The notes below the pieces were generated by a model. The model had not been told where the DNA came from and searched no databases. It worked only from the letters and a program-made list of their open reading frames with translations. A stretch of DNA of 64,000 nt from Barnesiella viscericola DSM 18177. Lineage in GTDB: Bacteria; Bacteroidota; Bacteroidia; Bacteroidales; Barnesiellaceae. Of the stretch, positions 4,002 to 19,760 are shown one piece after another. The position numbers and the translations under genes are program-made. The stretch is taken from assembly GCF_000512915.1 (NCBI RefSeq), contig NZ_CP007034.1:744001-808000 (forward strand), read 5' to 3'. The first letter of the stretch is position 1. Each line of letters opens with the position of its first letter.

Positions 4002-4032
4002 TCTTACGGAATCATTCAAACTCCTTGTCGAT

Positions 4033-4341
4033 ATGATTATCTTCAACACCACCTACCATGCCGACAACGCCCGCAAAGACGAGTTCATCGGCTGGCTCAA
4101 AGAGTCGTACATACCTACCGTGCTGGAACACGGCCTGTTGCAAGAACCTCAGTTGACCCGCATCTTTGCCGACAACGAAGAGGAGGGCACCAGCCTGTCG
4201 CTCCAATTCAAGTCGCCCGATACCCAGGCGCTGGAACGCTGGCACGAAGAGTGCGGCGAAGCATTGCTGGCCGAGATGCAGAAGCGGTTCGGCGACCAAG
4301 TATTGGGATTCAGTACGCTGCTCGAAGTAATCGATTTATAA
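4033..4341 (+). CDS. DUF4286 family protein
   Basis: Protein of 102 residues that begins MIIFNTTYHAD and has no signal peptide or membrane helix, so it is probably cytoplasmic. Sequence style and length fit the DUF4286 family, small alpha/beta proteins of unknown function common in Bacteroidetes. The open frame extends upstream to 3940, but the ATG at 4033 is preferred: the promoter box at 3994-4001 would lie inside the longer version and family members start at this point. The stop codon is followed directly by the ruvC ATG, which suggests a two-gene operon with coupled translation. No catalytic role can be read from the sequence. Confidence 0.8.
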   Translation: MIIFNTTYHADNARKDEFIGWLKESYIPTVLEHGLLQEPQLTRIFADNEEEGTSLSLQFKSPDTQALERWHEECGEALLAEMQKRFGDQVLGFSTLLEVIDL

Positions 4342-4929
4342 ATGACACCCGAGAACGACAGAGTCATCATAGGCATCGACCCCGGCACCAACGTCATGGG
4401 GTATGGCATCTTGCGCATCGTGGGCAACAAACCCGAGGTGGTGGCCCTGGGGGTAATCCAGCTCAACAAATTCGAGAGCCACTACCTGCGGTTGCGCCGC
4501 ATCTTTGAGCGGGTTCTCTCGCTCATCGAGCAGTACCTCCCCGACGAGATGGCCATCGAGGCCCCCTTCTTCGGCAAAAACGTGCAGTCGATGCTCAAAC
4601 TCGGCCGGGCCCAGGGGGTAGCCATGGCGGCCGCCCTCTCGCGCGACATACCCATCACCGAGTATGCTCCCCTCAAAATCAAGATGTCGATTACCGGTAA
4701 CGGCGGTGCCTCGAAAGAGCAAGTGGCCGCCATGCTGCAACGCATTCTCCATATCCCCGACGAGAACATGCTGCCCCAACTCGATGCAACCGACGGACTT
4801 GCCGCCGCGCTCTGCCACTTCTACCAGACCAACCGCCCCCAGGTGGCCAAGAGCTACAACAGCTGGAAAGACTTTATCAACAAAAATCCCGACAAGGTAT
4901 CGATGGGAAAGAAGCCGCTCGACAAATAA
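4342..4929 (+). CDS. ruvC: Crossover junction endodeoxyribonuclease RuvC
   Basis: Resolves Holliday junctions at the end of homologous recombination by paired symmetric cuts, working with RuvAB. The 195-residue protein shows the RNase H-like catalytic set: D13 in GIDPGT, E73 in AIEAPFF, and D148 and D151 in LDATDG, matching the four acidic residues of the family. The start abuts the preceding DUF4286 stop with no gap. The lysine-rich tail after about residue 165 is slightly longer than in E. coli. No ruvA or ruvB is nearby, as is common in Bacteroidetes. Confidence 0.96.
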
Positions 4930-5073
4930 GCGTGGCTCCTCACGTCATTCTATCCACATACGGCAGAAAATTTGATTATATTTTCTGCAATTCTCCCCAA
5001 AAAACAGAATATTTCACTACTGCTTCCTCCCCAAACAGGAAAGGAATCGAGCAAAGCAACCGATAAATAAACT

Positions 5074-5081
5074 TATCTTTG
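5074..5081 (+). promoter_or_regulatory. Candidate upstream promoter of metH (TATCTTTG)
   Basis: Exact TAnnTTTG box about 180 nt before the metH start; transcription from it would give a leader of roughly 175 nt. The leader holds a small GACC/GGTC hairpin and GC-rich segments, but I see no cobalamin-riboswitch B12 box and cannot assign it to a known SAM riboswitch class. The gap 4930-5262 carries no gene. Confidence 0.45.
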
Positions 5082-5230
5082 TAAGCGACAAAATGCCGTG
5101 TGACCATCTCCGGTCGGGAAACCTCGGCTTCGGCTGTTTGCACGACACCTTTTATATATAACAGGGAACGACCCGGCAATCGCCCCAAGAAGAAACGGGA
5201 TTGGCACTTGCACCGGTCGTCGCCGCTTAT

Positions 5231-5258
5231 TATCTTTACACCATATGCCATACATTTG
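5231..5258 (+). promoter_or_regulatory. Two promoter-like boxes directly at the metH start
   Basis: TATCTTTA (5231-5238) lies six bases before the ATG at 5245, and TACATTTG (5251-5258) lies four bases before the ATG at 5263. Either would produce an almost leaderless metH transcript. The boxes also make the start ambiguous between 5245 and 5263. Confidence 0.35.
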
Positions 5259-5262
5259 TGAT

Positions 5263-8200
5263 ATGACTACGCTGCAACAACTGCTTGACCAACGCATTCT
5301 CGTGCTCGACGGAGCCATGGGAACCATGATACAACGCTACGGACTGGGCGAAAAGGAGTTCCGGGGCGAACGCTTTGCCCTCGCCGACGTGGAACTGAAA
5401 GGCAACAACGACCTGCTGTGCCTCACCGCTCCACACGTCATCGACGAGATACACCGGGCCTACCTCGAAGCCGGGGCCGACATCATCGAGACCAATACCT
5501 TCAATGCCAACGCCATATCGATGGCCGACTACCGGCTCGAAGGGTATGTGAGCGAAATCAACCTCGCGGCGGCCCGCCTTGCCCGGCAGGCGGCCGACGA
5601 CTACACGACCCCGCAGCGGCCCCGCTTCGTGGCAGGATCGGTGGGCCCCACGAACAAGAGTTGTTCCATGTCACCCGACGTGGAGAATCCCGCCCTGCGC
5701 AGCCTGCACTTCGACACCCTCGCCGAGGCTTACCGCGAACAGATGACGGCGCTTATCGAAGGGGGGGTAGACCTGCTGCTCATCGAGACCATCTTCGATA
5801 CCCTCAACGCCAAGGCGGCGCTGTGGGGAGCCCGGCAGGCCATGGAGTCGGCCGGACGGGAAGTCCCCGTCGTGCTGTCGGTCACGGTCACCGAGAGCGG
5901 ACGTACCCTCTCGGGACAAACGCTCGAAGCCTTCCTCACCTCGGTATCGCACGCCCCGCTCCTGGCCGTGGGTCTCAACTGCTCGTTCGGTGCCCGCGAC
6001 ATGAAGCCCTGGTTGCAACGACTGGCGGCCATCGCTCCCTGCTACGTGAGTGCCTACCCCAACGCCGGGCTGCCCAACCAGTTGGGCGAATACGACGAGA
6101 CACCCCAGTCAATGGCCGTACAGATTAAAGAGTTTATCGACGAAGGGCTGGTCAACATCGTGGGCGGGTGTTGCGGCACCACCCCCGAGCATATCGCCGC
6201 CTACCGCTCGCTGGTAGCCGGAGCCTCGCCGCGTCGCCCGGTGCCCAGGGACCCGCGTCTGCATCTGTGCGGACTCGACGATCTGGTGGTCTCGCGCGAG
6301 AACAATTTCGTCAACATCGGCGAACGGTGCAACGTGGCCGGTTCGCGCAAGTTCCTGCGGCTCATTCACGAAAAGAACTACGCCGAAGCCCTCGACATCG
6401 CCCGACAGCAGGTCGAGGCCGGCGCCCAGATTATCGACATCAACATGGACGATGCCATGCTCGATGCCCGCGACGAGATGGTCAACTTCCTGAACCTCGT
6501 CGTCTCCGACCCCGACATCTACCGCGTCCCCGTAATGATCGACTCGTCGAAATGGGAGGTCATCTCGGCCGCCCTCCGATGCCTGCAAGGCAAGGCCATC
6601 GTCAACTCCATCAGCCTCAAAGAGGGCGAAGAGCTGTTTCTGCAACACGCCCGCGAAATCAAGCAGATGGGGGCGGCCATGGTGGTCATGGCGTTCGACG
6701 AGCAGGGACAGGCCGATACCTACGAACGCAAAATCGAGGTGTGTGCTCGCGCCTACCGTCTGCTCACCGAGGTGGCCGGCGTAGCTCCCTGCGACATCAT
6801 CTTCGACCCCAACGTGCTGGCCATCGCCACCGGCATCGAGAGTCACGACAACTATGCCGTGGACTTTATCAGGGCGACCGAGTGGATTCACCAACACCTG
6901 CCGGGAGCCAAGGTGAGCGGCGGGGTAAGCAACCTCTCCTTCTCCTTCCGCGGCAACAACTACATACGCGAGGCGATGCACGCCGTCTTCCTCTACCACG
7001 CCATCGGCAAGGGGCTCGACATGGCCATCGTCAACCCGGCCACTTCGGTCACCTACGACGACCTGCCGGCCGATACGCTCACCCTCATCGAGGACGTGGT
7101 GCTGAACCGCCGTCCCGACGCCACCGAACGGCTTATCGAGTTTGCCGCCCGCCATCGGGCCGAAGCGACCGTCCCGTCGACCGACTCCCCGACCGACCGC
7201 CGTAGCCAACCCGTGACCGACCGTCTGCGACAGGCACTCGTCAAGGGCGTGTCGACCCACCTCGAAGAAGATCTGGCCGAAGCGGTGGCCCAATACGGCT
7301 CGGCCATCGCCGTCATCGAACAGCCCCTCATGGAGGGTATGAACCGCGTGGGGCAACTCTTCGGCGAGGGAAAGATGTTCCTCCCCCAAGTGGTCAAGAG
7401 TGCCCGCACCATGAAGCAAGCCGTAGCAATCCTGCAACCCCTCATCGAGCAGGAGAATGCCCGCACGGGCGAAACCTCCAAACGGGGCAAATTCATCGTG
7501 GCCACAGTCAAGGGCGACGTGCACGACATCGGCAAAAACATCGTCTCCGTGATTCTCGCCTGCAACAATTTCGAAGTGATAGACCTGGGCGTGATGGTCC
7601 CGGCCGAACGGATTGTCGAACGGGCCATTGCCGAACAGGCCGATTTCGTAGGACTGAGCGGTCTCATCACCCCCTCGCTCGAAGAGATGGGCCACGTCGT
7701 GAGCGAGATGGAGAAGGCAGGTCTGCGCACCCCCGTCATCATCGGCGGGGCCACCACCTCGCGCCTCCACACGGCGGTAAAGATTGCCCCACGGTACAGC
7801 GGACCGGTCATTCACGCCGGCGACGCTTCGCAAAATCCGCTCATCGCCGCCCAACTGCTCAACCCACAGACTCGCCAGACCTTTATCAACTCGCTGCAAG
7901 CCGAGCAGGAGGCTCTGCGCCGCTCGATGAAACCGGCCGATACCCTGTCTCTGGCCGAGGCCGAGCAGCGGGCTCCCCGCATCGACTGGACCGGCTACAC
8001 GGCTCCCCGCCCCCGGCAACCGGGCCGCCACACGGTCAGTCCCACCCTCACGGAGATTCGCCCCTACATTAACTGGCGAGCCTTCTTTGCCGTGTGGAAG
8101 ATAGGGGCACAATATGCCGCCATAGCCGACATGCGGGGCTGCGACCACTGCCGGGCTGCCTGGCTGGCCGCATTCCCCACGGCCGAACGGGCCAAGGCTA

Positions 8201-11043: not shown

Positions 11044-13501
11044 ATGATCAATTTGAAAAAAAATTTTTACCCCTGAGTACGGCAGTAGCCGGAATGGTTG
11101 CCACATCGAGTTTGTGGGCGGCCGATGAATGACCCAACATTATTTTGTTCCTCGTAGACGACATGGGTTGGCAAGAGACCTCTGTCCCCTTCCACTCCGA
11201 AGTGACACCTCTGAACAACCGCTACCAAACGCCCAACATGCAGAAACTGGCCGAGAAAGGCGTAAAATTCATGCAAGCCTACGCTTGCGCCATCTCCTCG
11301 CCATCGCGATGCAGCCTCATGTCGGGTATGAATGCCGCCCGTCACCGGGTAACCAACTGGACACTCAATTACAACTCGAACAACGATGCCACCGGGGGCA
11401 GTATCACCCTGCCCGACTGGAACTACAACGGAATCCAACCGGCCGGCACAACGGTAAACAACGCCACCTCGATTACCTCATTACCCCAAATTCTGCACGA
11501 CAACGGCTACTACACCATTCACTGCGGCAAAGCGCACTTCGGAGCCAAGAACACGGCCGGTGAAGACCCGTTGAAATTTGGATTCGACGTGAACATAGCC
11601 GGAGGTGCCAACGGTGGCCCGGCCAGCTATTTGGGCTCGGACAACTACTGCACTGCCGGTTCGGACTTCTGGATCAACGGGTTGGACGAATATGCCGAAC
11701 AGGGAATGTTCCTTACCGAAGCCCTCACCCAAGAAGCCTGCCGTGTATTAGGGGAGCACCTCGACAGCCAGTCCAATCAACCATTCTACCTCTACATGGC
11801 CCATTATGCCATACACGCCCCCTACAATGCCGACTCTCGTTTCACATCGAGATACACCGGTGTTTTCGACGAGCAACTGGGACAGACTCTCAACAGCACC
11901 GAAGTCAATATCGCCGCATTGGTTGAGGGTATGGACAAAAGTTTGGGGGACATCATGACCTTCCTCGACGACCGGGCAATTGCCGAAAATACCATCTCTT
12001 CATGTCCGATAACGGAGGTCAGGCCGTAGCCCCCCGTCAAGGCCGTCACAACCGAGATCAAAACTATCCAGCCCGTGGTGGTAAAGGCTCGTCGTATATG
12101 GGAGGCGTGCATGAACCCATGATGGTCTACTGGCCCGGCGTAACCGTAGCTGGTACCGAAAACCACAACCCGGTGATGATCGAAGATTTCTTCCCCACCA
12201 TTCTCGAAATGGCCGGTGTCACCGATTATGAAACGGTACAAACTGTCGACGGTCACAGTTTTGTCGACGTAATCAAAAACCCCGGGATACAGCGCGACCG
12301 CACCACCATCTGGCACTTCCCCAACCGCTGGGGCGAAAGCCAAGACAAGAACGAAGGATACGGCGCCTACTCGGCTATCCTGAAAGGCGATTATCACCTG
12401 ATTTATTTCTGGGAGAATCAAGAGCGCCGGCTGTACAACATCAGAGAAGATGTGGGCGAACAAAACAACATGGCCGATCAATCGGCCTACGCTCAAACCT
12501 TGACCGAGCTGTCGGAAGAACTGACCGACTCGCTCATCGCCTTTGACGCCCAACGGTCCACCCAAAACGGGGAATATGTAGCCTGGCCCAAAGATGCCGT
12601 ATATGTTGAAACCGTCGAGATTGGCGACCCGGTGACCATTACCGATGCCATCTTCAAGTTCAGTAACGAGAATAACAAATACTACTACTCGATTCAAGAC
12701 AATCGGGGAGACGACATGGCTGGCCCCTTCTACTGGACTCTGGGCAATCACAACGACTACAAGGCCATTCAGGTAAGCAACGAGAACAAAACGACTGGCG
12801 AAGAGAAAAATACCCAACTCTTCTATTTCATGCCGGGAACAGGTGAAAACATGTTCAAAATTTACACCTACGACGGACAAATGGTCGATTATCTCGACGG
12901 GCTCACTCTCGACTCCTGGAATGGTGGCAACACGACAACTACAACCGAAACTCATAATTTGCGAACCCGAACTCGTTTGGACCCGTCAAACGCTCTTCAT
13001 CGACTGGAACAACGACAAGGAATTTGCCGGTGCAGACGAGGTATATGCCACAATGGGCAACGGCAACTCGGACAACAACTTCGGCGACACCAACGGTAGC
13101 GCTGCCGAAGGTTGGCAACGGACAATCAGCGTTCCGGCCGGAACCGAAGCCGGCACCTACCGCATGCGTGTCGTTTACATGGCCCCAACCCCTATACCGA
13201 AGATTGGCCTTCAAAAGTATTTACCGATTTCTTCGGTGAATTGAGAAACGGTATCGCCTATGATTTCGAGATTCAAATCGCCCAGGCCTCGGCCATCGAT
13301 GCCGTTACCGAAAGCGCCATCTACTACGATGCTCAGGCTCAGCTTCTCGTGGCTCCCCGCATGAGCGAAGTAGCTGTCTATAACCTGGCCGGACAACTCG
13401 TGCTCGATGCACAAGGCGCTGAAATCATCTCGGTAGCCTCGTTGGCACAAGGTATATACATTGCCAAGGTGGGCAACCAGGTAATCAAATTCGTGAAATA
13501 A
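11044..13501 (+). pseudogene. Decayed T9SS-exported sulfatase (sulfatase + GEVED + sorting domain)
   Basis: Remnant of a secreted sulfatase of about 815 residues. Reading needs four frame changes and one stop: a one-base loss in the A/T run near 11060 inside the signal peptide; an in-frame TGA at 11130-11132 (probably CGA before); a one-base loss near 12000 just before MSDNGGQ; a one-base gain (or two-base loss) near 12945; and a one-base loss in a C-run near 13184. Recognisable parts are the sulfatase start PNIILFLVDDMGWQ, the serine-type formylglycine signature SSPSRCSLMSG, MSDNGGQ, a GEVED-type segment LFIDWNNDKEFAG, and a T9SS type-A tail ending YIAKVGNQVIKFVK. Neighbouring genes are intact, so true decay is likelier than poor sequence. 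The 3' half closely resembles the 3' end of the gene at 18045. Confidence 0.85.
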
Positions 13502-13621: not shown

Positions 13622-14743
13622 TCAAGCAAACCGATTGATGATAGAGACAATCTCGCGCACCTCGTCGTCGGTCAGATAGTCCGACATCGGCAGGCTCAAC
13701 ACCTCGTGGGCCAACTGCTCGGCCACGGGCAGAGAGAGGTGGTTGTATTCGCGATAGCACTGCTGCTTGTGCGGCGGTATGGGATAGTGTATGAGGCTCC
13801 CTACCCCCTCGGTTTCGAGGTAGTGCATCAACCGGTCACGTTCGGCACAACGCACCACATACTGGTGCCAGATGTGCTCGCCTTCGGCCCCGGCCTGCGG
13901 GAGCACAATCCGTTCGTTGCGGATAGAATCGGTATAAAGGCGGGCAATCTCGGCCCTACGGCGATTCCCGGCATCGAGGTATTTCAGCTTGACCAGGAGA
14001 AAGGCAGCCTGCAAGTCGTCCATACGACTGTTCACCCCCTTGTATTCGTTGACATACCGCACGGACGACCCGTAGTTGCCCAAGGCACGCACCACATCGG
14101 CCAAGGCCGGGTCGTCGGTCGTCACCGCACCGGCATCGCCCAAGGCACCCAGATTCTTTGTCGGGTAGAAACTCTGCCCCGAAGCATCGCCCAGGGCTCC
14201 CGTATGGAACGCCCCCTGCAACCCGGCCACCGGCGAGACGGCCCCGAAGGCCTGGGCATTGTCCTCGACGATTTTCAATCCGTGACGGGCGGCCACGGCT
14301 TTCAGCTGCTCGTCCCAGCAGGCCCGGCCATACAGGTGCACCACCATGATGGCCCGCGTGCGGGGTGTGACAGCCTGCTCGACCAGCGAGGTATCGAGAT
14401 TATGGGTCTGCTCCGAAGGCTCGACAAAAACGGGTACCAACCCGTTGTCGGTGATAGCCAGCACCGAAGCCACATAGGTGTTCGAGGGGACAATCACCTC
14501 GTCGCCCGGGTGCATCACACCCAACTCGATGTAGGCGCGCAAGATGAGCCGCAAGGCGTCCAGTCCGTTACCCGTAGCCACGGCATGACGGCAACCCAGG
14601 TAGCGACACAACTCGGCTTCGAGTTGCGACACATACTTGCCCCGGATATACCAGCCGCCCTCGATAACCTCGGCAGCTACGGCTTTCATCTCGGCCATAT
14701 AGGGCTCATTGGCCCGTTGTAAAGAGAGATGAGGATATTTCAT
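13622..14743 (-). CDS. PLP-dependent sugar aminotransferase (DegT/DnrJ/EryC1; FdtB/QdtB-like)
   Basis: Likely transfers an amino group to the C3 keto group of a dTDP-3-keto-6-deoxyhexose, giving dTDP-Fuc3N or dTDP-Qui3N. The 373-residue protein has the family pattern: substrate/PLP region GNGLDALRL, D161 in VEDNAQAFGA (pairs with the PLP nitrogen), and K196 in SFYPTKNLGALGDAG as the Schiff-base lysine. It is the last gene of a minus-strand operon after rmlB, rmlA and two ketoisomerase genes, with a four-base overlap with the gene before it. No N-acetyltransferase or glycosyltransferase follows, so later steps must be encoded elsewhere. The exact sugar product is inferred. Confidence 0.9.
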   Translation of the reverse strand: MKYPHLSLQRANEPYMAEMKAVAAEVIEGGWYIRGKYVSQLEAELCRYLGCRHAVATGNGLDALRLILRAYIELGVMHPGDEVIVPSNTYVASVLAITDNGLVPVFVEPSEQTHNLDTSLVEQAVTPRTRAIMVVHLYGRACWDEQLKAVAARHGLKIVEDNAQAFGAVSPVAGLQGAFHTGALGDASGQSFYPTKNLGALGDAGAVTTDDPALADVVRALGNYGSSVRYVNEYKGVNSRMDDLQAAFLLVKLKYLDAGNRRRAEIARLYTDSIRNERIVLPQAGAEGEHIWHQYVVRCAERDRLMHYLETEGVGSLIHYPIPPHKQQCYREYNHLSLPVAEQLAHEVLSLPMSDYLTDDEVREIVSIINRFA

Positions 14744-15147
14744 TTCTTAAAATCACTATATTCGCGTATGTAATCGGCCTCATCGTAGTAGTCGGAGGTC
14801 AAGACGAGACAAACCGACCCCGACGAGAAATTGTTGAGCACCCGCCAGATGCCCGGGACAATGAGCAGACCGCAGGAGGGACGATTCAACGTCACCGTGC
14901 GGGTGTGCTCCCCGTCGTCGAGCAACACGTCGAACGAGCCGCCGGCAGCCACCAAAAACTCGTACAGTTGCTTGTGCGAATGGCCGCCACGCTCCTCGCC
15001 ACCCGGTACATCATACAGATAGTAGACCCGCTTCACGGCAAAAGGCAACTCGCGGTTGTTCTCCACCACCGTGATGCTGCCGCTCTCCTGCATGTGCTTG
15101 GGCAGCTGAACGAGGCGACAATCGTCGACCGATACCCGTTTACTCAT
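14740..15147 (-). CDS. dTDP-4-oxo-6-deoxyglucose 3,4-ketoisomerase (FdtA/QdtA cupin family)
   Basis: Predicted to shift the keto group from C4 to C3 of dTDP-4-keto-6-deoxyglucose, the step between RmlB and the aminotransferase. The 135-residue cupin has the active-site pair H56 and H58 in RGGHSHK and the family tail TSDYYDEADYIREYSDF. It lacks the DxRGxL motif usually found near residue 20 (here MQESGSITV). The gene overlaps the aminotransferase by four bases and the paralogue in front by eight, so the three are probably translationally coupled. FdtA (galacto product) versus QdtA (gluco product) cannot be decided by eye. Confidence 0.85.
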   Translation of the reverse strand: MSKRVSVDDCRLVQLPKHMQESGSITVVENNRELPFAVKRVYYLYDVPGGEERGGHSHKQLYEFLVAAGGSFDVLLDDGEHTRTVTLNRPSCGLLIVPGIWRVLNNFSSGSVCLVLTSDYYDEADYIREYSDFKK

Positions 15148-15562
15148 GGCTACCTCCTTTCAATAATGTGCAATACTCCTCGAAATCTTCTATATAATCG
15201 GCTGCATCGTAGGGTGTCGACGAGAGGACAAGTGCCAGCGAATTGGTCGAGAAGTTGTCCAGTTCGCGCCACATCATGCGCGGCACATAGAGACCGTAGT
15301 ACGACCGGGCCATGTGGTAGCGCCGGGTCTCGCTCCCGTCGTTCAGCACCACATCGAAACTGCCCGACAGGGCTACGATAAACTCTTCCTGCCGACGAAA
15401 GGCATGCCCGTTGCGACGCTCGTCGCCCGGCACATCATACAACCAGTAAGTGCGGGAAATCTCAAAGGGGATATGCCGCGCACTTTCGATAAACGAGAGG
15501 TTGCCCCGTTTGTCGGCCACCTTGGGCAACTGAATCAGCCGTACCTGTTCAAAGCTCATCAT
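15140..15562 (-). CDS. FdtA/QdtA-like cupin protein with altered active site
   Basis: Paralogue of the next gene (both about 135-140 residues, same cupin fold with [14 protein letters not shown] and a [14 protein letters not shown] tail). It keeps the N-terminal DKRGNLSF motif that its neighbour lacks, but the active-site H-x-H is changed: [11 protein letters not shown] has H53 followed by F55 instead of a second histidine. It may be an inactive or altered-specificity partner, or contribute a subunit to a mixed enzyme. A start at 15559 is also possible (MM start). It overlaps the end of rmlA by 11-14 bases and the following gene by eight. Confidence 0.8.
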
Positions 15563-16439
15563 TCGCCAGTTTTATCAAATATTGTCCATATTGGTTCTTC
15601 TTCATGGGCTCGGCCAGTCGGAGCAGCTGCTCCCGGTCGATCCACCCCATGCGATAGGCCACCTCTTCGAGCGAGGCCACTTTGAGCCCCTGCCGGTGTT
15701 CGATGGTCTCGATAAAGTTCGAGGCCTCGTAGAGCGACTCGTGAGTGCCGGTATCGAGCCAGGCAAAACCACGGCCCATCAACTGCACGGCCAGACTCTT
15801 CGATTCGAGAAATGCCTGGTTGACCGAGGTTATTTCCAGTTCGCCACGGGCCGAAGGCTTCACCTGCTTGGCCACCTCGACCACCCGGTTGGGATAGAAA
15901 TAGAGCCCCACCACCGCATAGTTGGAACGGGGCTTGGCCGGCTTTTCCTCAATGCTCACGGCACGGCCCTCCTCGTCAAACTCGACCACGCCGTAGCGTT
16001 CGGGATCTCCTACCCGGTAACCGAATACGGTAGCAATCCCCTTCTCGGCCTCGGCGACCGACTGGCGCAACATGCGGGTAAAGCTCTGCCCGTAGAAGAT
16101 GTTATCGCCCAACACCAGGCAGACGGTGTCGCCGCCGATAAACCGCTCGCCAATGAGAAAGGCCTGGGCCAAACCGTCGGGAGAAGGCTGCTCGGCATAC
16201 TCGAACCGCACGCCAAACTGACTGCCGTCACCCAACAGCCTCTCGAACAGGGGCAGGTCGACCGGTGTGCTGATGATGAGTATCTCGCGAATCCCCGCCA
16301 GCATCAACACCGATATGGGGTAATAAATCATAGGCTTGTCATACACGGGCAACATCTGTTTCGAGACTCCGCGCGTGATGGGATACAACCGCGTGCCCGA
16401 CCCTCCGGCCAATACGATACCTTTCATGGTTCTATTCAA
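15549..16439 (-). CDS. rmlA: Glucose-1-phosphate thymidylyltransferase RmlA
   Basis: Makes dTDP-glucose from dTTP and glucose-1-phosphate, the first step of dTDP-deoxysugar synthesis. The 296-residue length fits RmlA. The nucleotide-binding motif is [14 protein letters not shown], followed by [43 protein letters not shown] and [10 protein letters not shown] are family landmarks. The start may be four codons later at the ATG of MKGIVLAGG (16427). It lies ten bases after rmlB and overlaps the cupin gene that follows. Confidence 0.96.
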
Positions 16440-16448
16440 TTAGGGCAA

Positions 16449-17651
16449 TCAACGATTGCCATACATTTGTTCATAATACTTTTGATAGTCGCCGCTCACC
16501 ACCTCGTCGACCCACGCCTGATGGTCGAGATACCAGCGCACGGTCTTCTCGATGCCCACCCGGAAGGGGGTCTCGGGATACCAGCCCAGTTCGCGGGCAA
16601 TCTTCGAGGGGTCGATGGCATAGCGCATGTCGTGCCCCGGGCGGTCGCCCACAAAGGTAATCAACCGTTCGTCGATATTCTCGACATCGGTCTTCAACAC
16701 CCGGCGGTATTCGGGCTCCTCGCGCATGATGCGGGCAATGATGGCAATCACGAGCTTCACGATATTGAGGTTGGTCTCCTCGTTGAATCCACCTATGTTA
16801 TAAACCTCGCCCGTACGGCCACGCTGCAACACGGCATCGATAGCCTTGGCATGGTCCTCCACATAGAGCCAGTCGCGCACATTCTCGCCCTTGCCATAGA
16901 CCGGGAGCTTCTGCCCGGCCAGGATATTTCGGATTATCAGCGGTATCAGTTTCTCGGGAAAGTGATAGGGCCCGTAGTTGTTGGAGCAGCGGGTAATGTT
17001 CACCGGCAAGCCATAGGTCTCGTGGTAAGCTCGCACAAAGAGGTCGGCACTCGCCTTCGAGGCCGAATAGGGCGAACGGGGATCGAGCGGAGTCGTCTCG
17101 GTAAAGAATCGCTTGCCATAGGTGTGGAGATCGGTACGCCCGCTCACCACCCGGCGCACGTCGGGGTCGGTAATTTCGAGCGGGTGCGGCTCGTCATAAT
17201 CTTTCGTCAGCGACCCGTACACCTCGTCGGTCGACACCTGCAAGAACTTCTTACCCTCGGCATATAGCGGGTGCCCCTCGGCGTCCTTCCCCCGATACCA
17301 CGCCTTACGGGCACAGTCGAGCAGATTCTGCGCTCCCAATATGTTGGTCTCCAAGAAAAGCTGCGGATTGGTAATGCTGCGGTCCACATGCGACTCGGCC
17401 GCAAAGTTGACCACATAGTCGATGTCGGTCTCGGCAAAAATCTGAGCCACCAACTCGGCGTTGCCGATATCGCCCTTGACAAAACGTACACGCTCATCGG
17501 CAATCTCCTGCCTGATTGTACCCAGGTTACCGGCATAGGTGAGTTTGTCCAACACAACCACATATATATCACGGCCATACTTACCCAGCAAGTATTTCAA
17601 GAAATTGGCGCCAATAAAACCGGCGGCCCCGGTGACCAAATATTTTTTCAT
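16449..17651 (-). CDS. rmlB: dTDP-glucose 4,6-dehydratase RmlB
   Basis: Converts dTDP-glucose to dTDP-4-keto-6-deoxyglucose with bound NAD. The start at 17651 gives MKKYLVTGAAGFIGANF with the Rossmann GxxGxxG at the very N-terminus; the frame is open 126 bases further upstream, but that extension has no family match. STDEVYG and the catalytic YSASK (Tyr/Lys) are present, as are FAAESHVDRSI and RCSNNYGPYHFPEKLIP. At 400 residues it is about 50 longer than typical RmlB because of insertions around RKAWYRGKDAEGHPLY and DPDVRRVVSGRTDLHTY, seen in some Bacteroidetes forms. First gene of the amino-sugar operon. Confidence 0.95.
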   Translation of the reverse strand: MKKYLVTGAAGFIGANFLKYLLGKYGRDIYVVVLDKLTYAGNLGTIRQEIADERVRFVKGDIGNAELVAQIFAETDIDYVVNFAAESHVDRSITNPQLFLETNILGAQNLLDCARKAWYRGKDAEGHPLYAEGKKFLQVSTDEVYGSLTKDYDEPHPLEITDPDVRRVVSGRTDLHTYGKRFFTETTPLDPRSPYSASKASADLFVRAYHETYGLPVNITRCSNNYGPYHFPEKLIPLIIRNILAGQKLPVYGKGENVRDWLYVEDHAKAIDAVLQRGRTGEVYNIGGFNEETNLNIVKLVIAIIARIMREEPEYRRVLKTDVENIDERLITFVGDRPGHDMRYAIDPSKIARELGWYPETPFRVGIEKTVRWYLDHQAWVDEVVSGDYQKYYEQMYGNR

Positions 17652-18044
17652 ACCAGATTTTTTAAATCTGTCGCAATTTACGACTTTTTTAAGAAATAAT
17701 ACCACGGAGTATTCTAATATTGTCAACACTCCCCACGTGATTATCCCCAAATCTCCAGCAGAATAATCGTTCATCACTCATCACAGGTCCTGCGGTGAAA
17801 TGCCCTGATTATTTTATCAGGACAAAAATTTTCTTCTACCGTAAGTTCATATTTTTCAAGACAATATTATATATTTTTATTATTATTCCCAAAAAAAATT
17901 ATTTCCCCGCTAGGGGTAATCCCATTTTTTTCCGTTTAATATTATGTGAAAGTTTACTGTAAGGGGGAAATATTTTACTCCTATGAAAAACAAAACAGAA
18001 AAAAACAAATGATAACCAATTACCCATAAAAACACTTATTTATC
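17652..18044. other. AT-rich divergent intergenic region, no gene seen
   Basis: 393 bases between rmlB (minus) and a secreted-protein gene (plus). It contains a small hairpin CCTGAT/ATCAGG (17804-17821) and long A/T tracts. No exact TAnnTTTG box was found on either strand, though promoters for both flanking genes must be here. Confidence 0.5.
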
Positions 18045-19760
18045 ATGAAGAAAAATTTATTCCTTTCGTTACTTTGCGTAACAAGTCTATTCGTGTCCAA
18101 TTCGGCCTCGGCCGCAGTGACACCTGTTGCAGGCTATTCCACCGACCCGAAAATCAGTACGTCCGAGAATCCTGTATGGTACACGATGATGTCATCGCAC
18201 CTCACAGCGTCGACCCGCCAAAACCGTTTCTTGAAATGGGACGAAGCAAACAACCGTTTGTGTACCGAACAATACTCAAAGGGTATTCCCGCAAGTTCGC
18301 TTACCGAAGGCCACTTGTGGCGACTGGAATCGGCCAACGACGGCAACGAGAGCCACGTATATCTGGTAAACTTCAATGGAAAGCGTGTATTTGTACCGGC
18401 TACCGCAGTTGCCGAAGATGGAGATAATCCCAATAGAAATACCCCGCTCGAAATGAACGAGACCGGTTCTATTTGGGACTTGAAAACCAGTACTTCTACG
18501 GGAATCAGCACCGACTGTGCCGAAGGTCAATACGTACTGCAATTCGTGGACTATTCGGGAGAGCGTGCGTTCCTAAATGCCATGGATGGTGGTGAGCTCA
18601 ATTTTGGCGTGACAGTCTATGCAGCCGGTGTACACCAGGCTTCGGGCTGGTTCTTCTACGAGACCGAGTACACACCTGCCGTTAAAACCATTTCGGTTGC
18701 AGCCAACGACAACGCGTTTGGTACGGTAGCCATTGAAGGCCAAACCGGCAACAGCGTGGAAATTGCCCAATCGAAAGCCGTAACCGTAACGGCCACCGCC
18801 GCAGAGGGGTACATGTTCCACCGCTGGGTTGAACAAGGCACCGAAAACGTATTGAGCTATCGTCCTACCTTCACCTACAATGGAACCGAAGATAAAGCCT
18901 TCGTAGCTGAGTTCGTAGAAAAAGACTACCCCATCATGACCCGCTTCTATGTCGTAAACCTGACCCAACAGAACCGTTACCTGGGTGCTGCGTCCTACAC
19001 CGTAGGTGATGAAACTCACGAATTGTTCTCGTACACCAGCGAAGCCGAACTCCCCTTCACCCAATATATGGAGTTGAACAAAGTACAGGAAGAAGGTGCC
19101 GTAATTGACAAAACCTCGACCCCCATCAAACTTACGACAGGTGTAGAGTCGTTCAGCATGAAGTTCAAACAATACAACAACACGATTACCTTCAACAGAA
19201 ACAACGAAACAATTACTTGTAACCCCGAGTTGGTATGGACCCGTCAGGCCGTTTATATCGACTGGAACAACGACATGGAGTTTGCCGGTGAAGGCGAAAT
19301 CTATGAATCGATGGGCATAAACAGCGAGACCAACAACTTCGACGACCCCAACGGTAGCATCGAAAACGGCTGGCAAAGAAGCATCACCATTCCCGAAGGG
19401 ACGGCTGCCGGTACCTACCGCATGCGTGTCGTTTACATGGCCCCCGACCCCTTCACCGAAGATTGGCCTTCGAAGGTCTTCACCGACTTCTTCGGCGAGT
19501 TGAGAAACGGCGTAGCCTATGACTTTGAGATTCAAATCGCCCAGGCATCGGGTATCGAAGCCGTTACCGAGAGCGCCATCTACTACGATGCACAAGCACA
19601 GGTTCTCGTAGCTCCTCACATGGGTAAAGCTGTCGTTTACAACCTGGCCGGACAAGTTGTTATGCAGGCCGAAAATGCCGATGAGGTATCGGTTTCGGCT
19701 CTTGCCAAAGGCGTATATGTAGCCAATATCGACGGAAAGATGATTAAATTCATCAGATAA
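18045..19760 (+). CDS. Secreted GEVED-domain protein with T9SS sorting domain
   Basis: Exported 571-residue protein of unknown role; signal peptide MKKNLFLSLLCVTSLFVSNSASA. Visible modules in order: a WY-type module (about 43-206, from PVWYTMM to SGWFFYE, ricin-like in look); a bacterial repeat of the InlB B-repeat style (about 214-292, GYMFHRWVEQG then VAEFV); a GEVED domain (about 300-500, with VYIDWNNDMEFAGEGEIY and GTYRMRVVYMAP); and a T9SS type-A C-terminal signal (about 507-571, AVVYNLAGQVV ... GVYVANIDGKMIKFIR). It is therefore probably passed through the outer membrane by the Por system and anchored or released. The C-terminal third is nearly the same as the end of the sulfatase pseudogene at 11044. 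The neighbour at 19845 has the same modules in a different order. Confidence 0.85.
   Translation: MKKNLFLSLLCVTSLFVSNSASAAVTPVAGYSTDPKISTSENPVWYTMMSSHLTASTRQNRFLKWDEANNRLCTEQYSKGIPASSLTEGHLWRLESANDGNESHVYLVNFNGKRVFVPATAVAEDGDNPNRNTPLEMNETGSIWDLKTSTSTGISTDCAEGQYVLQFVDYSGERAFLNAMDGGELNFGVTVYAAGVHQASGWFFYETEYTPAVKTISVAANDNAFGTVAIEGQTGNSVEIAQSKAVTVTATAAEGYMFHRWVEQGTENVLSYRPTFTYNGTEDKAFVAEFVEKDYPIMTRFYVVNLTQQNRYLGAASYTVGDETHELFSYTSEAELPFTQYMELNKVQEEGAVIDKTSTPIKLTTGVESFSMKFKQYNNTITFNRNNETITCNPELVWTRQAVYIDWNNDMEFAGEGEIYESMGINSETNNFDDPNGSIENGWQRSITIPEGTAAGTYRMRVVYMAPDPFTEDWPSKVFTDFFGELRNGVAYDFEIQIAQASGIEAVTESAIYYDAQAQVLVAPHMGKAVVYNLAGQVVMQAENADEVSVSALAKGVYVANIDGKMIKFIR

What the first reader, a model, noticed from the sequence alone, without database searches (positions are those of the whole stretch)
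14740..15562. Tandem ketoisomerase-like cupins with complementary motif losses
The gene at 14740 has the catalytic H-x-H (RGGHSHK) but lacks the DxRGxL motif. The gene at 15140 has DKRGNLSF but HAF in place of H-x-H. Each lacks what the other keeps, the genes overlap, and the family works as dimers. A mixed dimer or a pseudo-enzyme partner with a changed product is a testable idea.
Basis: partly seen in the sequence, partly recalled or inferred. Interest (0 to 1): 0.6.

Follow-up and report, generated by a model that had tools for sequence, protein, structure and literature searches.

The report
Split sugar ketoisomerase of paired half-enzymes
Two neighbouring genes encode sister sugar-processing proteins that have each lost a different half of the active site, a division kept across many gut and environmental bacteria, which suggests that the two halves must join to make one working enzyme.

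Summary
Both genes are FdtA-family (PF05523) dTDP-sugar 3,4-ketoisomerase cupins in a five-gene operon, rmlB-rmlA-B-A-aminotransferase. B (15140-15562) keeps D-x-R-G-x-L but has H-A-F. A (14740-15147) keeps H-S-H but has lost the arginine. In 131 complete tandem or fused pairs (congeners, same-contig duplicates and broken loci removed), mostly Bacteroidota and Fibrobacterota, B has the Arg in 131 and lacks a complete HxH in 131; A has HxH in 131 and lacks the Arg in 127. Solitary relatives mostly keep both (66 of 89). In 39 of the 131 the two are fused, B then A. Conservation is mosaic: B's N-terminal hairpin and A's barrel look like the solitary enzyme. In related RmlC enzymes this hairpin is swapped into the partner's active site. 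Best explanation: an obligate domain-swapped heterodimer with one composite active site (A barrel plus B strand), probably making dTDP-3-keto-6-deoxyglucose for dTDP-Qui3N. Heterodimerisation and product are inferred, not shown; a small coupling analysis did not support the trans contacts.

The parts
15140..15562 (-). Partner B: FdtA-family cupin, 140 aa, strand donor with a barrel lacking the second His
   Evidence: ORF; PF05523 158.6 bits; B proteins form one clade, 100/96, with trait columns masked
15497..15514 (-). D-K-R-G-N-L motif of B (Arg19 = FdtA Arg15 = QdtA position 17)
   Evidence: Arg kept in B in 131 of 131 pairs
15398..15406 (-). H-A-F of B in place of H-x-H (FdtA His49 kept, His51 replaced by Phe)
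   Evidence: HxH incomplete in B in 131 of 131 pairs
14740..15147 (-). Partner A: FdtA-family cupin, 135 aa, type A1 (Tyr35, Arg95), catalytic barrel
   Evidence: ORF; PF05523 172.9 bits
15073..15090 (-). Q-E-S-G-S-I of A where D-x-R-G-x-L is expected (Arg to Ser)
   Evidence: Arg lost in A in 127 of 131 pairs
14974..14982 (-). H-S-H of A (FdtA His49 and His51)
   Evidence: kept in A in 131 of 131 pairs
13622..14743 (-). DegT/DnrJ/EryC1 aminotransferase, FdtB/QdtB-like, 373 aa, overlaps the end of A by 4 nt
   Evidence: PF01041; best PDB chains 5u1z, 5u21, 7n63 and QdtB 3frk
15549..16439 (-). rmlA, glucose-1-phosphate thymidylyltransferase (overlaps the start of B)
   Evidence: TIGR01207 501.7 bits, cut-off 360.65
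16449..17777 (-). rmlB, dTDP-glucose 4,6-dehydratase (ORF as listed; the true start is probably inside it)
   Evidence: TIGR01181 443.3 bits, cut-off 365.1

Best explanation
The two genes encode the two subunits of one dTDP-4-keto-6-deoxyglucose 3,4-ketoisomerase. They form an obligate domain-swapped heterodimer (a pseudo-heterodimer in the fused versions) with a single composite active site. A supplies the cupin barrel with the proposed base and proton-shuttle histidines (FdtA His49, His51) and, in this A1-type pair, Tyr35 and Arg95. B supplies the N-terminal hairpin carrying D-x-R-G-x-L, whose arginine reaches across into A's site. The reciprocal site (B barrel plus A hairpin) is dead: its second His is Phe (Tyr in others), Tyr36 is Trp, and it receives no arginine. 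The pair evolved by duplication of a solitary enzyme holding both halves, followed by reciprocal loss. With Arg at both product-controlling positions (15 from B, 95 from A), as in Campylobacter WlaRB, titled a TDP-quinovose 3,4-ketoisomerase, the likely product is dTDP-3-keto-6-deoxy-D-glucose, which the adjacent aminotransferase converts to dTDP-Qui3N. Shown: sequence, pairing, fusion, mosaic conservation, operon. Inferred: heterodimer, arginine in trans, product.
For: (1) Reciprocal loss in 131 complete pairs: B Arg15 131/131, B HxH incomplete 131/131, A HxH kept 131/131, A Arg15 lost 127/131. Of 89 solitary proteins of at least 112 aa, 66 keep Arg15+HxH and 85 keep HxH. (2) Pairing: among 72 pairs and 92 solitary units the only ones with HAF/HAY that lack an adjacent A are a fragment (L134) and L089, where B and A of one locus lie about 6 kb apart; B-like is upstream in 72 of 72 pairs. 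(3) B-A fused in one frame in 39 of 131; the fused loci of the genome scan are in Bacteroidota (33) and Fibrobacterota (7). (4) Mosaic: residues 13-22 fit the solitary-enzyme profile better in B in 61 of 62 and 74 of 74 pairs; 105-126 fit better in A in 59 of 62 and 63 of 74; B strand plus A barrel is the best combination in 57 of 62 and 66 of 74 (five pairs are in both sets); with the motif residues left out both trends hold together in 62 of 74. (5) B's barrel can erode while its strand stays: four fused proteins have also lost His49 of B (L272, L285, L286, L288), and L132 lost His49, His51, Arg46 and Arg95 of B but kept ADYRGNLSF. (6) In RmlC-type structures TDP is bound by residues of the partner's swapped strands, R25 apparently among them (PMC9095892 section 9; the marks are lost in the held text and read from spacing, and R25 as the D-x-R-G arginine is my identification); the FdtA dimer is domain-swapped (PMC2943079). 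(7) AlphaFold2 of a natural fusion: pLDDT 90.7, pTM 0.88; halves superpose full-length on crystal chains at 1.3-1.6 A. (8) Purifying selection on both in the genus: median dN/dS 0.044 (B), 0.062 (A). (9) rmlA/rmlB/DegT context.
Against: No complex was predicted or measured. Mean-field coupling analysis (132 pairs, Neff 94) put 2 of 1764 B-hairpin/A-barrel pairs in its top 150 against 9 of 1764 for B-hairpin/B-barrel; its strongest hairpin pairs (B21-B59, B21-B109) are within one chain. It is underpowered and confounded by shared descent, but not supportive. Type A2 pairs (55 of 131) have lost both Tyr35 and Arg95 from A, so their composite site is not canonical. B's barrel keeps His49 in 126 of 131 and Arg95 in 131 of 131 and has strongly fixed residues of its own (Trp36 97%, Thr102 and Asn103 100%), unlike a simply decaying domain. 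Arg15 is also absent in 19 of 89 solitary-unit proteins, all of which keep HxH (one of them is the A of the split locus L089), so its loss need not disable A. Four of the 131 pairs keep Arg15 in A (L140, L154, L264, L273). The profile comparison of FdtA with RmlC was not significant. The review's wording on which strands are swapped (two and three) leaves open whether Tyr35's strand is included. Pairs share descent, so the counts are not independent.
Confidence: 0.6

Rival explanations
1. B is the catalytic subunit with a changed reaction: it keeps Arg15, His49, usually Tyr35, and Arg95, and Phe/Tyr at position 51 removes the proton shuttle so that another product forms. A is an accessory subunit.
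For: B keeps His49 in 126 of 131, Arg95 in 131 of 131 and Arg15 in 131 of 131, and has its own fixed residues Trp36, Thr102, Asn103. The coupling analysis favoured within-chain hairpin-barrel pairs.
Against: A keeps HxH in 131 of 131, hard to explain if A were accessory. B loses His49 in four fused proteins and its active-site residues in L132 while A's HxH stays.
Confidence: 0.15
2. Two separate homodimeric enzymes acting in sequence: A isomerises, and B carries out another step (an epimerisation, or binding or handing on of the product).
For: B is a clade of its own with a distinct fixed signature. Consecutive enzymes are often neighbours and can fuse.
Against: Mosaic conservation in which A's hairpin and B's barrel both drift from the solitary enzyme. 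Solitary family members without B also sit beside such an aminotransferase: 49 of 92 have a same-strand DegT downstream.
Confidence: 0.12
3. Neutral ratchet: duplicated subunits of a homodimer lost one site each by drift and became mutually dependent. Chemistry and regulation are unchanged and A is simply the remaining catalytic barrel.
For: A homodimer with two intersubunit sites can lose one site at little cost if half activity suffices. The pattern fits this.
Against: B's barrel is not drifting freely: Trp36 97%, Phe/Tyr51 95%, Thr102 and Asn103 100%, and dN/dS 0.044. This is a statement about origin and is compatible with the best explanation.
Confidence: 0.1
4. B is an inactive regulatory or stabilising subunit and A alone forms a competent active site without the arginine, as solitary relatives that lack Arg15 presumably do.
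For: 19 of 89 solitary-unit PF05523 proteins lack Arg15 and all 19 keep HxH.
Against: B's D-x-R-G-N-L strand would then not need to be so well kept (Arg 131 of 131; strand kept in L132 where the barrel eroded).
Confidence: 0.03

Closest known systems
FdtA, dTDP-4-keto-6-deoxyglucose 3,4-ketoisomerase of Aneurinibacillus thermoaerophilus (PDB 2pa7, 2pae, 2pak, 2pam)
   Same: Same Pfam family, full-length match; domain-swapped dimer and His49/His51 (PMC2943079); same kind of pathway
   Different: One chain holding Arg15 and both histidines, and His at position 95 (inverting, galacto product). Here these parts are divided between two chains and position 95 is Arg
WlaRB of Campylobacter jejuni (5tpu, TDP-quinovose 3,4-ketoisomerase) and HCAN_0198 of Helicobacter canadensis (7n67)
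   Same: Among the best structural matches; Arg at both product-controlling positions (alignments), the set the composite A1/B site would have
   Different: Single-chain enzymes with both motifs in one chain
QdtA of Thermoanaerobacterium thermosaccharolyticum (4o9e, 4zu5; double mutant Y17R/R97H 4zu7)
   Same: Same fold; positions 17 and 97 correspond to FdtA 15 and 95
   Different: Single-chain enzyme with Tyr17 and Arg97 (from the mutant's title)
RmlC-type dTDP-sugar epimerases (StrM 7pwh, CBU1838)
   Same: Cupin dimer with swapped strands that contribute to TDP binding in the partner's site (PMC9095892); VIA-align Z 12.5 of 7pwh to the fused model
   Different: Homodimers, different reaction; profile comparison not significant
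FdtD of Shewanella denitrificans (4mzu)
   Same: Fused protein containing a PF05523 ketoisomerase domain
   Different: Fused to an N-acetyltransferase, not to a second, complementary ketoisomerase
Trypanosome AdoMetDC-prozyme and similar enzyme/dead-paralogue heterodimers (PMC5201418, PMC6221367; only the start of the abstracts seen, in the listing)
   Same: Works like: activity needs a catalytically dead paralogue
   Different: Unrelated family; one paralogue is described as the enzyme, whereas here each appears to supply a part of one site

Membership tests
FdtA/QdtA sugar 3,4-ketoisomerase family (PF05523), protein A | Full-length PF05523 match above the curated cut-off | tested here: met
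   172.9 bits, cut-off 23, profile 2-128 of 131
FdtA/QdtA sugar 3,4-ketoisomerase family (PF05523), protein A | His-x-His active-site pair (FdtA His49/His51) | tested here: met
   HSH; kept in A in 131 of 131 pairs
FdtA/QdtA sugar 3,4-ketoisomerase family (PF05523), protein A | D-x-R-G-x-L motif (Arg15) | tested here: not met
   QESGSI; Arg lost in A in 127 of 131 pairs. Not universal in the family: 70 of 89 solitary-unit proteins have the Arg
FdtA/QdtA sugar 3,4-ketoisomerase family (PF05523), protein B | Full-length PF05523 match above the curated cut-off | tested here: met
   158.6 bits, profile 2-129 of 131
FdtA/QdtA sugar 3,4-ketoisomerase family (PF05523), protein B | His-x-His active-site pair (FdtA His49/His51) | tested here: not met
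   HAF; incomplete in B in 131 of 131 pairs. B is a sequence family member but by this criterion not an active ketoisomerase on its own
FdtA/QdtA sugar 3,4-ketoisomerase family (PF05523), protein B | D-x-R-G-x-L motif (Arg15) | tested here: met
   DKRGNL; Arg in B in 131 of 131 pairs
dTDP-3-amino-3,6-dideoxyhexose pathway | rmlA, rmlB, ketoisomerase and 3-aminotransferase together | tested here: met
   the same genes on the same strand in 8 of 8 congeners
dTDP-3-amino-3,6-dideoxyhexose pathway | N-acyltransferase (FdtC/QdtC) in the cluster | tested here: inconclusive
   No such ORF recognised next to the operon in the window (read by eye); acyl- or formyltransferase-like genes follow the pair in 7 of 10 chosen loci elsewhere
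Obligate heterodimer with composite active site | Physical A-B association and loss of activity of each alone | not testable with these tools
   Only comparative evidence and an AF2 model of a natural fusion

The most novel reading that the evidence does not exclude
Bacteroidota and Fibrobacterota use a modular two-part ketoisomerase. A universal 'cap' subunit B donates one active-site arginine strand to exchangeable 'barrel' subunits A1 (Tyr35, Arg95) or A2 (Phe35, Ala/Ser95, Glu97). The choice of barrel sets the C-4' configuration of the product, so surface sugars are switched by swapping half of one active site.
Probability: 0.25. Interest if true: 0.75.

Novelty: new variant of a known kind. 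Interest (0 to 1): 0.62.

Why it matters
FdtA-type ketoisomerases make precursors of 3-amino-3,6-dideoxy sugars for bacterial surface glycans. If the pair is an obligate heterodimer with one composite site, reading such loci as two independent FdtA/WxcM-like enzymes would be wrong, single-gene expression would fail, and the naturally fused and eroded versions give a ready series for studying how a homodimer with two shared active sites becomes a heteromer. The product-controlling positions would fall on different chains, which makes the control of sugar configuration directly testable.

Tried and rejected
Considered and rejected: that the losses are a local accident or pseudogenisation (same split in 127 of 131 pairs; dN/dS 0.044 and 0.062); that B has lost the whole HxH (it keeps the first His in 126 of 131); that the change of product follows from B alone (kept as a rival).

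Led nowhere or weak: hhalign of 13 solitary FdtA-like proteins against 10 RmlC proteins was not significant (Prob 0.3, E 0.18), although its register puts DxRG on DxRG and RGGHAHK on RGLHFQK. Mean-field coupling analysis on 132 pairs was underpowered and did not show hairpin-barrel contacts between chains. A viral-contig scan with a fused protein found no confirmed relative. Label changes of partner type were 28 on a quick B tree and 4 on the A tree; this suggests that B changes partners, but I did not check the support of that B tree and do not lean on it. A is not one clade in the masked tree (5 changes; the bootstrap had not fully settled). The second AlphaFold job was not used: no complex can be predicted here.

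Corrected recall: my notes hold a recalled QdtA double mutant 'Y17R/R18G'. The PDB title gives Y17R/R97H, and the argument uses that. Recalled and not checked: Tyr37 of QdtA as catalytic acid (in note 31); the product of HCAN_0198.

Literature: full-text searches of the PMC library listed no paper whose title or abstract start describes paired or heteromeric 3,4-ketoisomerases; some searches listed only 20 of 1,325, 20 of 355, 30 of 75 and 15 of 80 papers, and subscription papers are not held, so this is weak evidence of novelty. Not held: the 2007 FdtA structure paper, the 2015 FdtA/QdtA stereochemistry paper, the 2017 C. jejuni WlaR paper, the 2008 Qui3NAc pathway paper and a 2007 RmlC paper.
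Full report
WHAT IS THERE. On the - strand the window holds a compact operon: rmlB (16449-17777), rmlA (15549-16439), cupin B (15140-15562), cupin A (14740-15147) and a DegT aminotransferase (13622-14743); rmlB and rmlA are 9 nt apart and the others overlap. NCBIfam names rmlA and rmlB above cut-off. The aminotransferase is closest among PDB chains to 5u1z, 5u21, 7n63 and QdtB 3frk. A and B are both full-length PF05523 FdtA proteins. The genome has no other PF05523 gene at E 0.001. In 8 of 8 congeners the pair also has rmlB, rmlA and DegT on its strand in this order.

THE OBSERVATION. In FdtA the active site has His49 and His51, with His95 near C-4'. The published proposal is that His49 is the base and His51 may shuttle protons (PMC2943079 section 4.1, read in full). 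The PDB mutants H49N and H51N fix the register. A has HSH and QESGSI: both histidines, no Arg15. B has HAF and DKRGNL: His49 and Arg15, no His51.

SURVEY. PF05523 was searched in 9 genomes of the family (9 of 9 with exactly two hits), 198 of the order (67 with a hit at 0.001) and 395 of the phylum (89 with a hit at 1e-20). All hits above about 60 bits, and two weaker, were fetched (160 loci). Tandem pairs, fusions included, occur in 37 of the 198 order genomes and 29 of the 395 phylum genomes (counted by hand from the handles, plus G000), and in 38 family codes. Of 72 tandem pairs 67 have exactly the window's pattern, and the B-like member is upstream in 72. The five exceptions are a broken A (L103), a B with L-A-H (L105), an eroded fusion (L132) and two A that keep Arg15 (L140, L154). 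Of 92 solitary units 66 keep both motifs. HAF/HAY without an adjacent A occurs in one fragment (L134) and in L089, where B and A of one locus lie about 6 kb apart on opposite strands; L235 is an N-terminal fragment with a B-like start that does not reach HxH. L213 (a fragment of another subfamily), L122, L125 and L225 lack the second His in other ways.

FUSIONS. The 80 lie in Bacteroidota (67), Fibrobacterota (9), Ignavibacteriota (1), Chlorobiota (1) and two without a phylum; many are metagenome bins, so the rare phyla need checking. In 40 of the 80 loci the two are in one frame; 39 of these are B then A, and the fortieth (L271) has a broken alignment. Merged with the sample, and without 8 congeners and 18 duplicate, incomplete or complex rows, 131 pairs remain, 39 fused. 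B: Arg15 131/131, HxH incomplete 131/131. A: HxH 131/131, Arg15 lost 127/131. HxH is incomplete in 63 of 63 upstream members of the sampled pairs (genus collapsed) against 4 of 89 solitary-unit proteins; descent makes the Fisher p-value a description only.

MOSAIC CONSERVATION. A profile of 37 solitary enzymes with both motifs was used to score segments of A and B. In 62 pairs (genus collapsed) residues 4-12 fit better in B in 59 and 13-22 in 61; residues 41-52 fit better in A in 57, 81-104 in 48 and 105-126 in 59; 33-40 leans to A (43 of 62), and 23-32 and 53-80 show no consistent difference. B strand plus A barrel scores best in 57 of 62. In the second set of 74 pairs (five loci shared with the first set) the figures are 62, 74, 70, 58 and 63 of 74; 33-40 shows no lean (B better in 33), and the composite is best in 66 of 74. 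Leaving out the motif residues, both trends hold together in 62 of 74. The boundary lies between residues 22 and 33-41. In RmlC-type enzymes TDP is held by residues of both protomers; [quoted passage not shown] The stars are lost in the held text, but spaces after F21, R25, F28 and E30 suggest where they stood (PMC9095892, section 9 read in full). That R25 is the Arg of D-x-R-G-x-F is my identification. A second paper says that RmlC's swapped strands cover the active site of the other subunit (PMC2684688, passages only). The mosaic boundary thus matches the swapped hairpin. The FdtA review speaks of strands two and three as swapped; whether that includes the strand with Tyr35 cannot be decided from the text, and I follow RmlC.

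EROSION. Four fused proteins have also lost His49 from B (L272, L285, L286, L288), and the fused protein of L132 has lost His49, His51, Arg46 and Arg95 from its B half; all five keep D-x-R-G-N-L. In 32 aligned fusions, R-G-N-L of the B half and R-G-x-H-x-H of the A half are invariant.

STRUCTURE. AlphaFold2 of the fusion at L236 gave pLDDT 90.7 and pTM 0.88, with a poorly defined linker. VIA-align matches model residues 2-134 to 7n67 chain B (133 residues, 1.5 A), 4-137 to FdtA 2pa7 chain B (134 residues, 1.6 A) and 168-298 to 5tpu chain C (131 residues, 1.3 A), N-terminal strands included. Each half's strands are therefore placed relative to its own barrel as in crystal chains of this family, FdtA being a swapped dimer. 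Coordinates are not given by the tool, so the distance of the arginine to the partner site was not measured.

PRODUCT. The PDB title of 4zu7 names the QdtA double mutant Y17R/R97H, positions that correspond to FdtA Arg15/His95. The review says that retaining enzymes have Arg and inverting ones His at 95. WlaRB, titled TDP-quinovose 3,4-ketoisomerase, and HCAN_0198, titled only 3,4-ketoisomerase, have Arg at both (alignments). The window's composite site has Arg15 from B and Arg95 from A, hence the prediction of the gluco product and dTDP-Qui3N. In 71 of 131 pairs the composite site holds Arg15, His49, His51, Tyr35 and Arg95. Of the other 60, 55 are type A2 (Tyr35 to Phe and Arg95 to another residue, Ala, Ser or Thr in 53, with Glu97 in 48) and 5 have Phe35 with Arg95. 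The product of A2 pairs may differ; Tyr35 and Arg95 of A are the strongest couple in the coupling analysis.

ORIGIN. With the trait columns masked, B is one clade (100/96, one origin in all of 200 bootstrap trees; the bootstrap had not fully settled) and A lies among solitary enzymes (106 rows). The simplest history is a duplication of a both-motif enzyme with one origin of B. Both genes are under purifying selection in the genus (9 genes each, median dN/dS 0.044 and 0.062).

CONTEXT. A same-strand DegT aminotransferase follows in 56 of 72 pairs; rmlA directly precedes in 21 and is present in 24. Genes directly after the pair in 10 chosen loci were hexapeptide transferases (4), GNAT acetyltransferases (2), a formyltransferase (1), a methyltransferase (1) and unmatched (2). 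This agrees with N-acylated 3-amino-3,6-dideoxyhexoses.

AGAINST. See the Against line. The largest gaps are that heterodimerisation has not been tested, that the coupling analysis gave no support for contacts between B's hairpin and A's barrel, and that A2 pairs do not have a canonical composite site. B's barrel is also more constrained than a dead site needs; Trp36 and Phe/Tyr51 may plug it (inference).

VERDICT. A widespread, ancient split of one enzyme over two genes, probably a heterodimer with one composite active site: a new variant of a known family.

Noticed in passing
window 11145-13501 (+): A sulfatase-like gene appears split over three overlapping or adjacent frames (11145-12029, 12002-13099, 13112-13501), as if carrying frameshifts (read by eye).
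   Followed up: no
window 13112-13501 and 18045-19760: The C-terminal part of the split sulfatase-like region and of the 571-aa protein share a near-identical module (FTDFFGELRNG...YDFEIQIAQAS), on both sides of the sugar operon.
   Followed up: no
A2-type loci, e.g. L082, L083, L092, L144, L253: A second kind of A partner: Tyr35 to Phe and Arg95 to Ala/Ser/Thr change together, usually with a Glu at 97 (W-A-x-E in place of W-R-E-L). Possibly a product switch.
   Followed up: partly
L251, about 4003-5370: One B followed by an A2 and an A1 in tandem, with a further partial B upstream: one B may serve two kinds of A.
   Followed up: no
L132:4976-5719: Fused B-A protein of 248 aa whose B half lost the barrel's active-site residues but kept the D-x-R-G-N-L strand.
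   Followed up: partly
L089: B and A of one locus sit about 6 kb apart on opposite strands and still show complementary losses.
   Followed up: no
f124 loci such as L149, L153, L156, L159: 23 solitary both-motif enzymes of one family (code f124) have no same-strand DegT aminotransferase downstream within the fetched stretch (0 of 23); their pathway is unclear.
   Followed up: no
L122 and L125: Another PF05523 subfamily next to DegT with H-A-L in place of H-x-H, W94/R95 also lost, and no second PF05523 domain in the fetched stretch.
   Followed up: no
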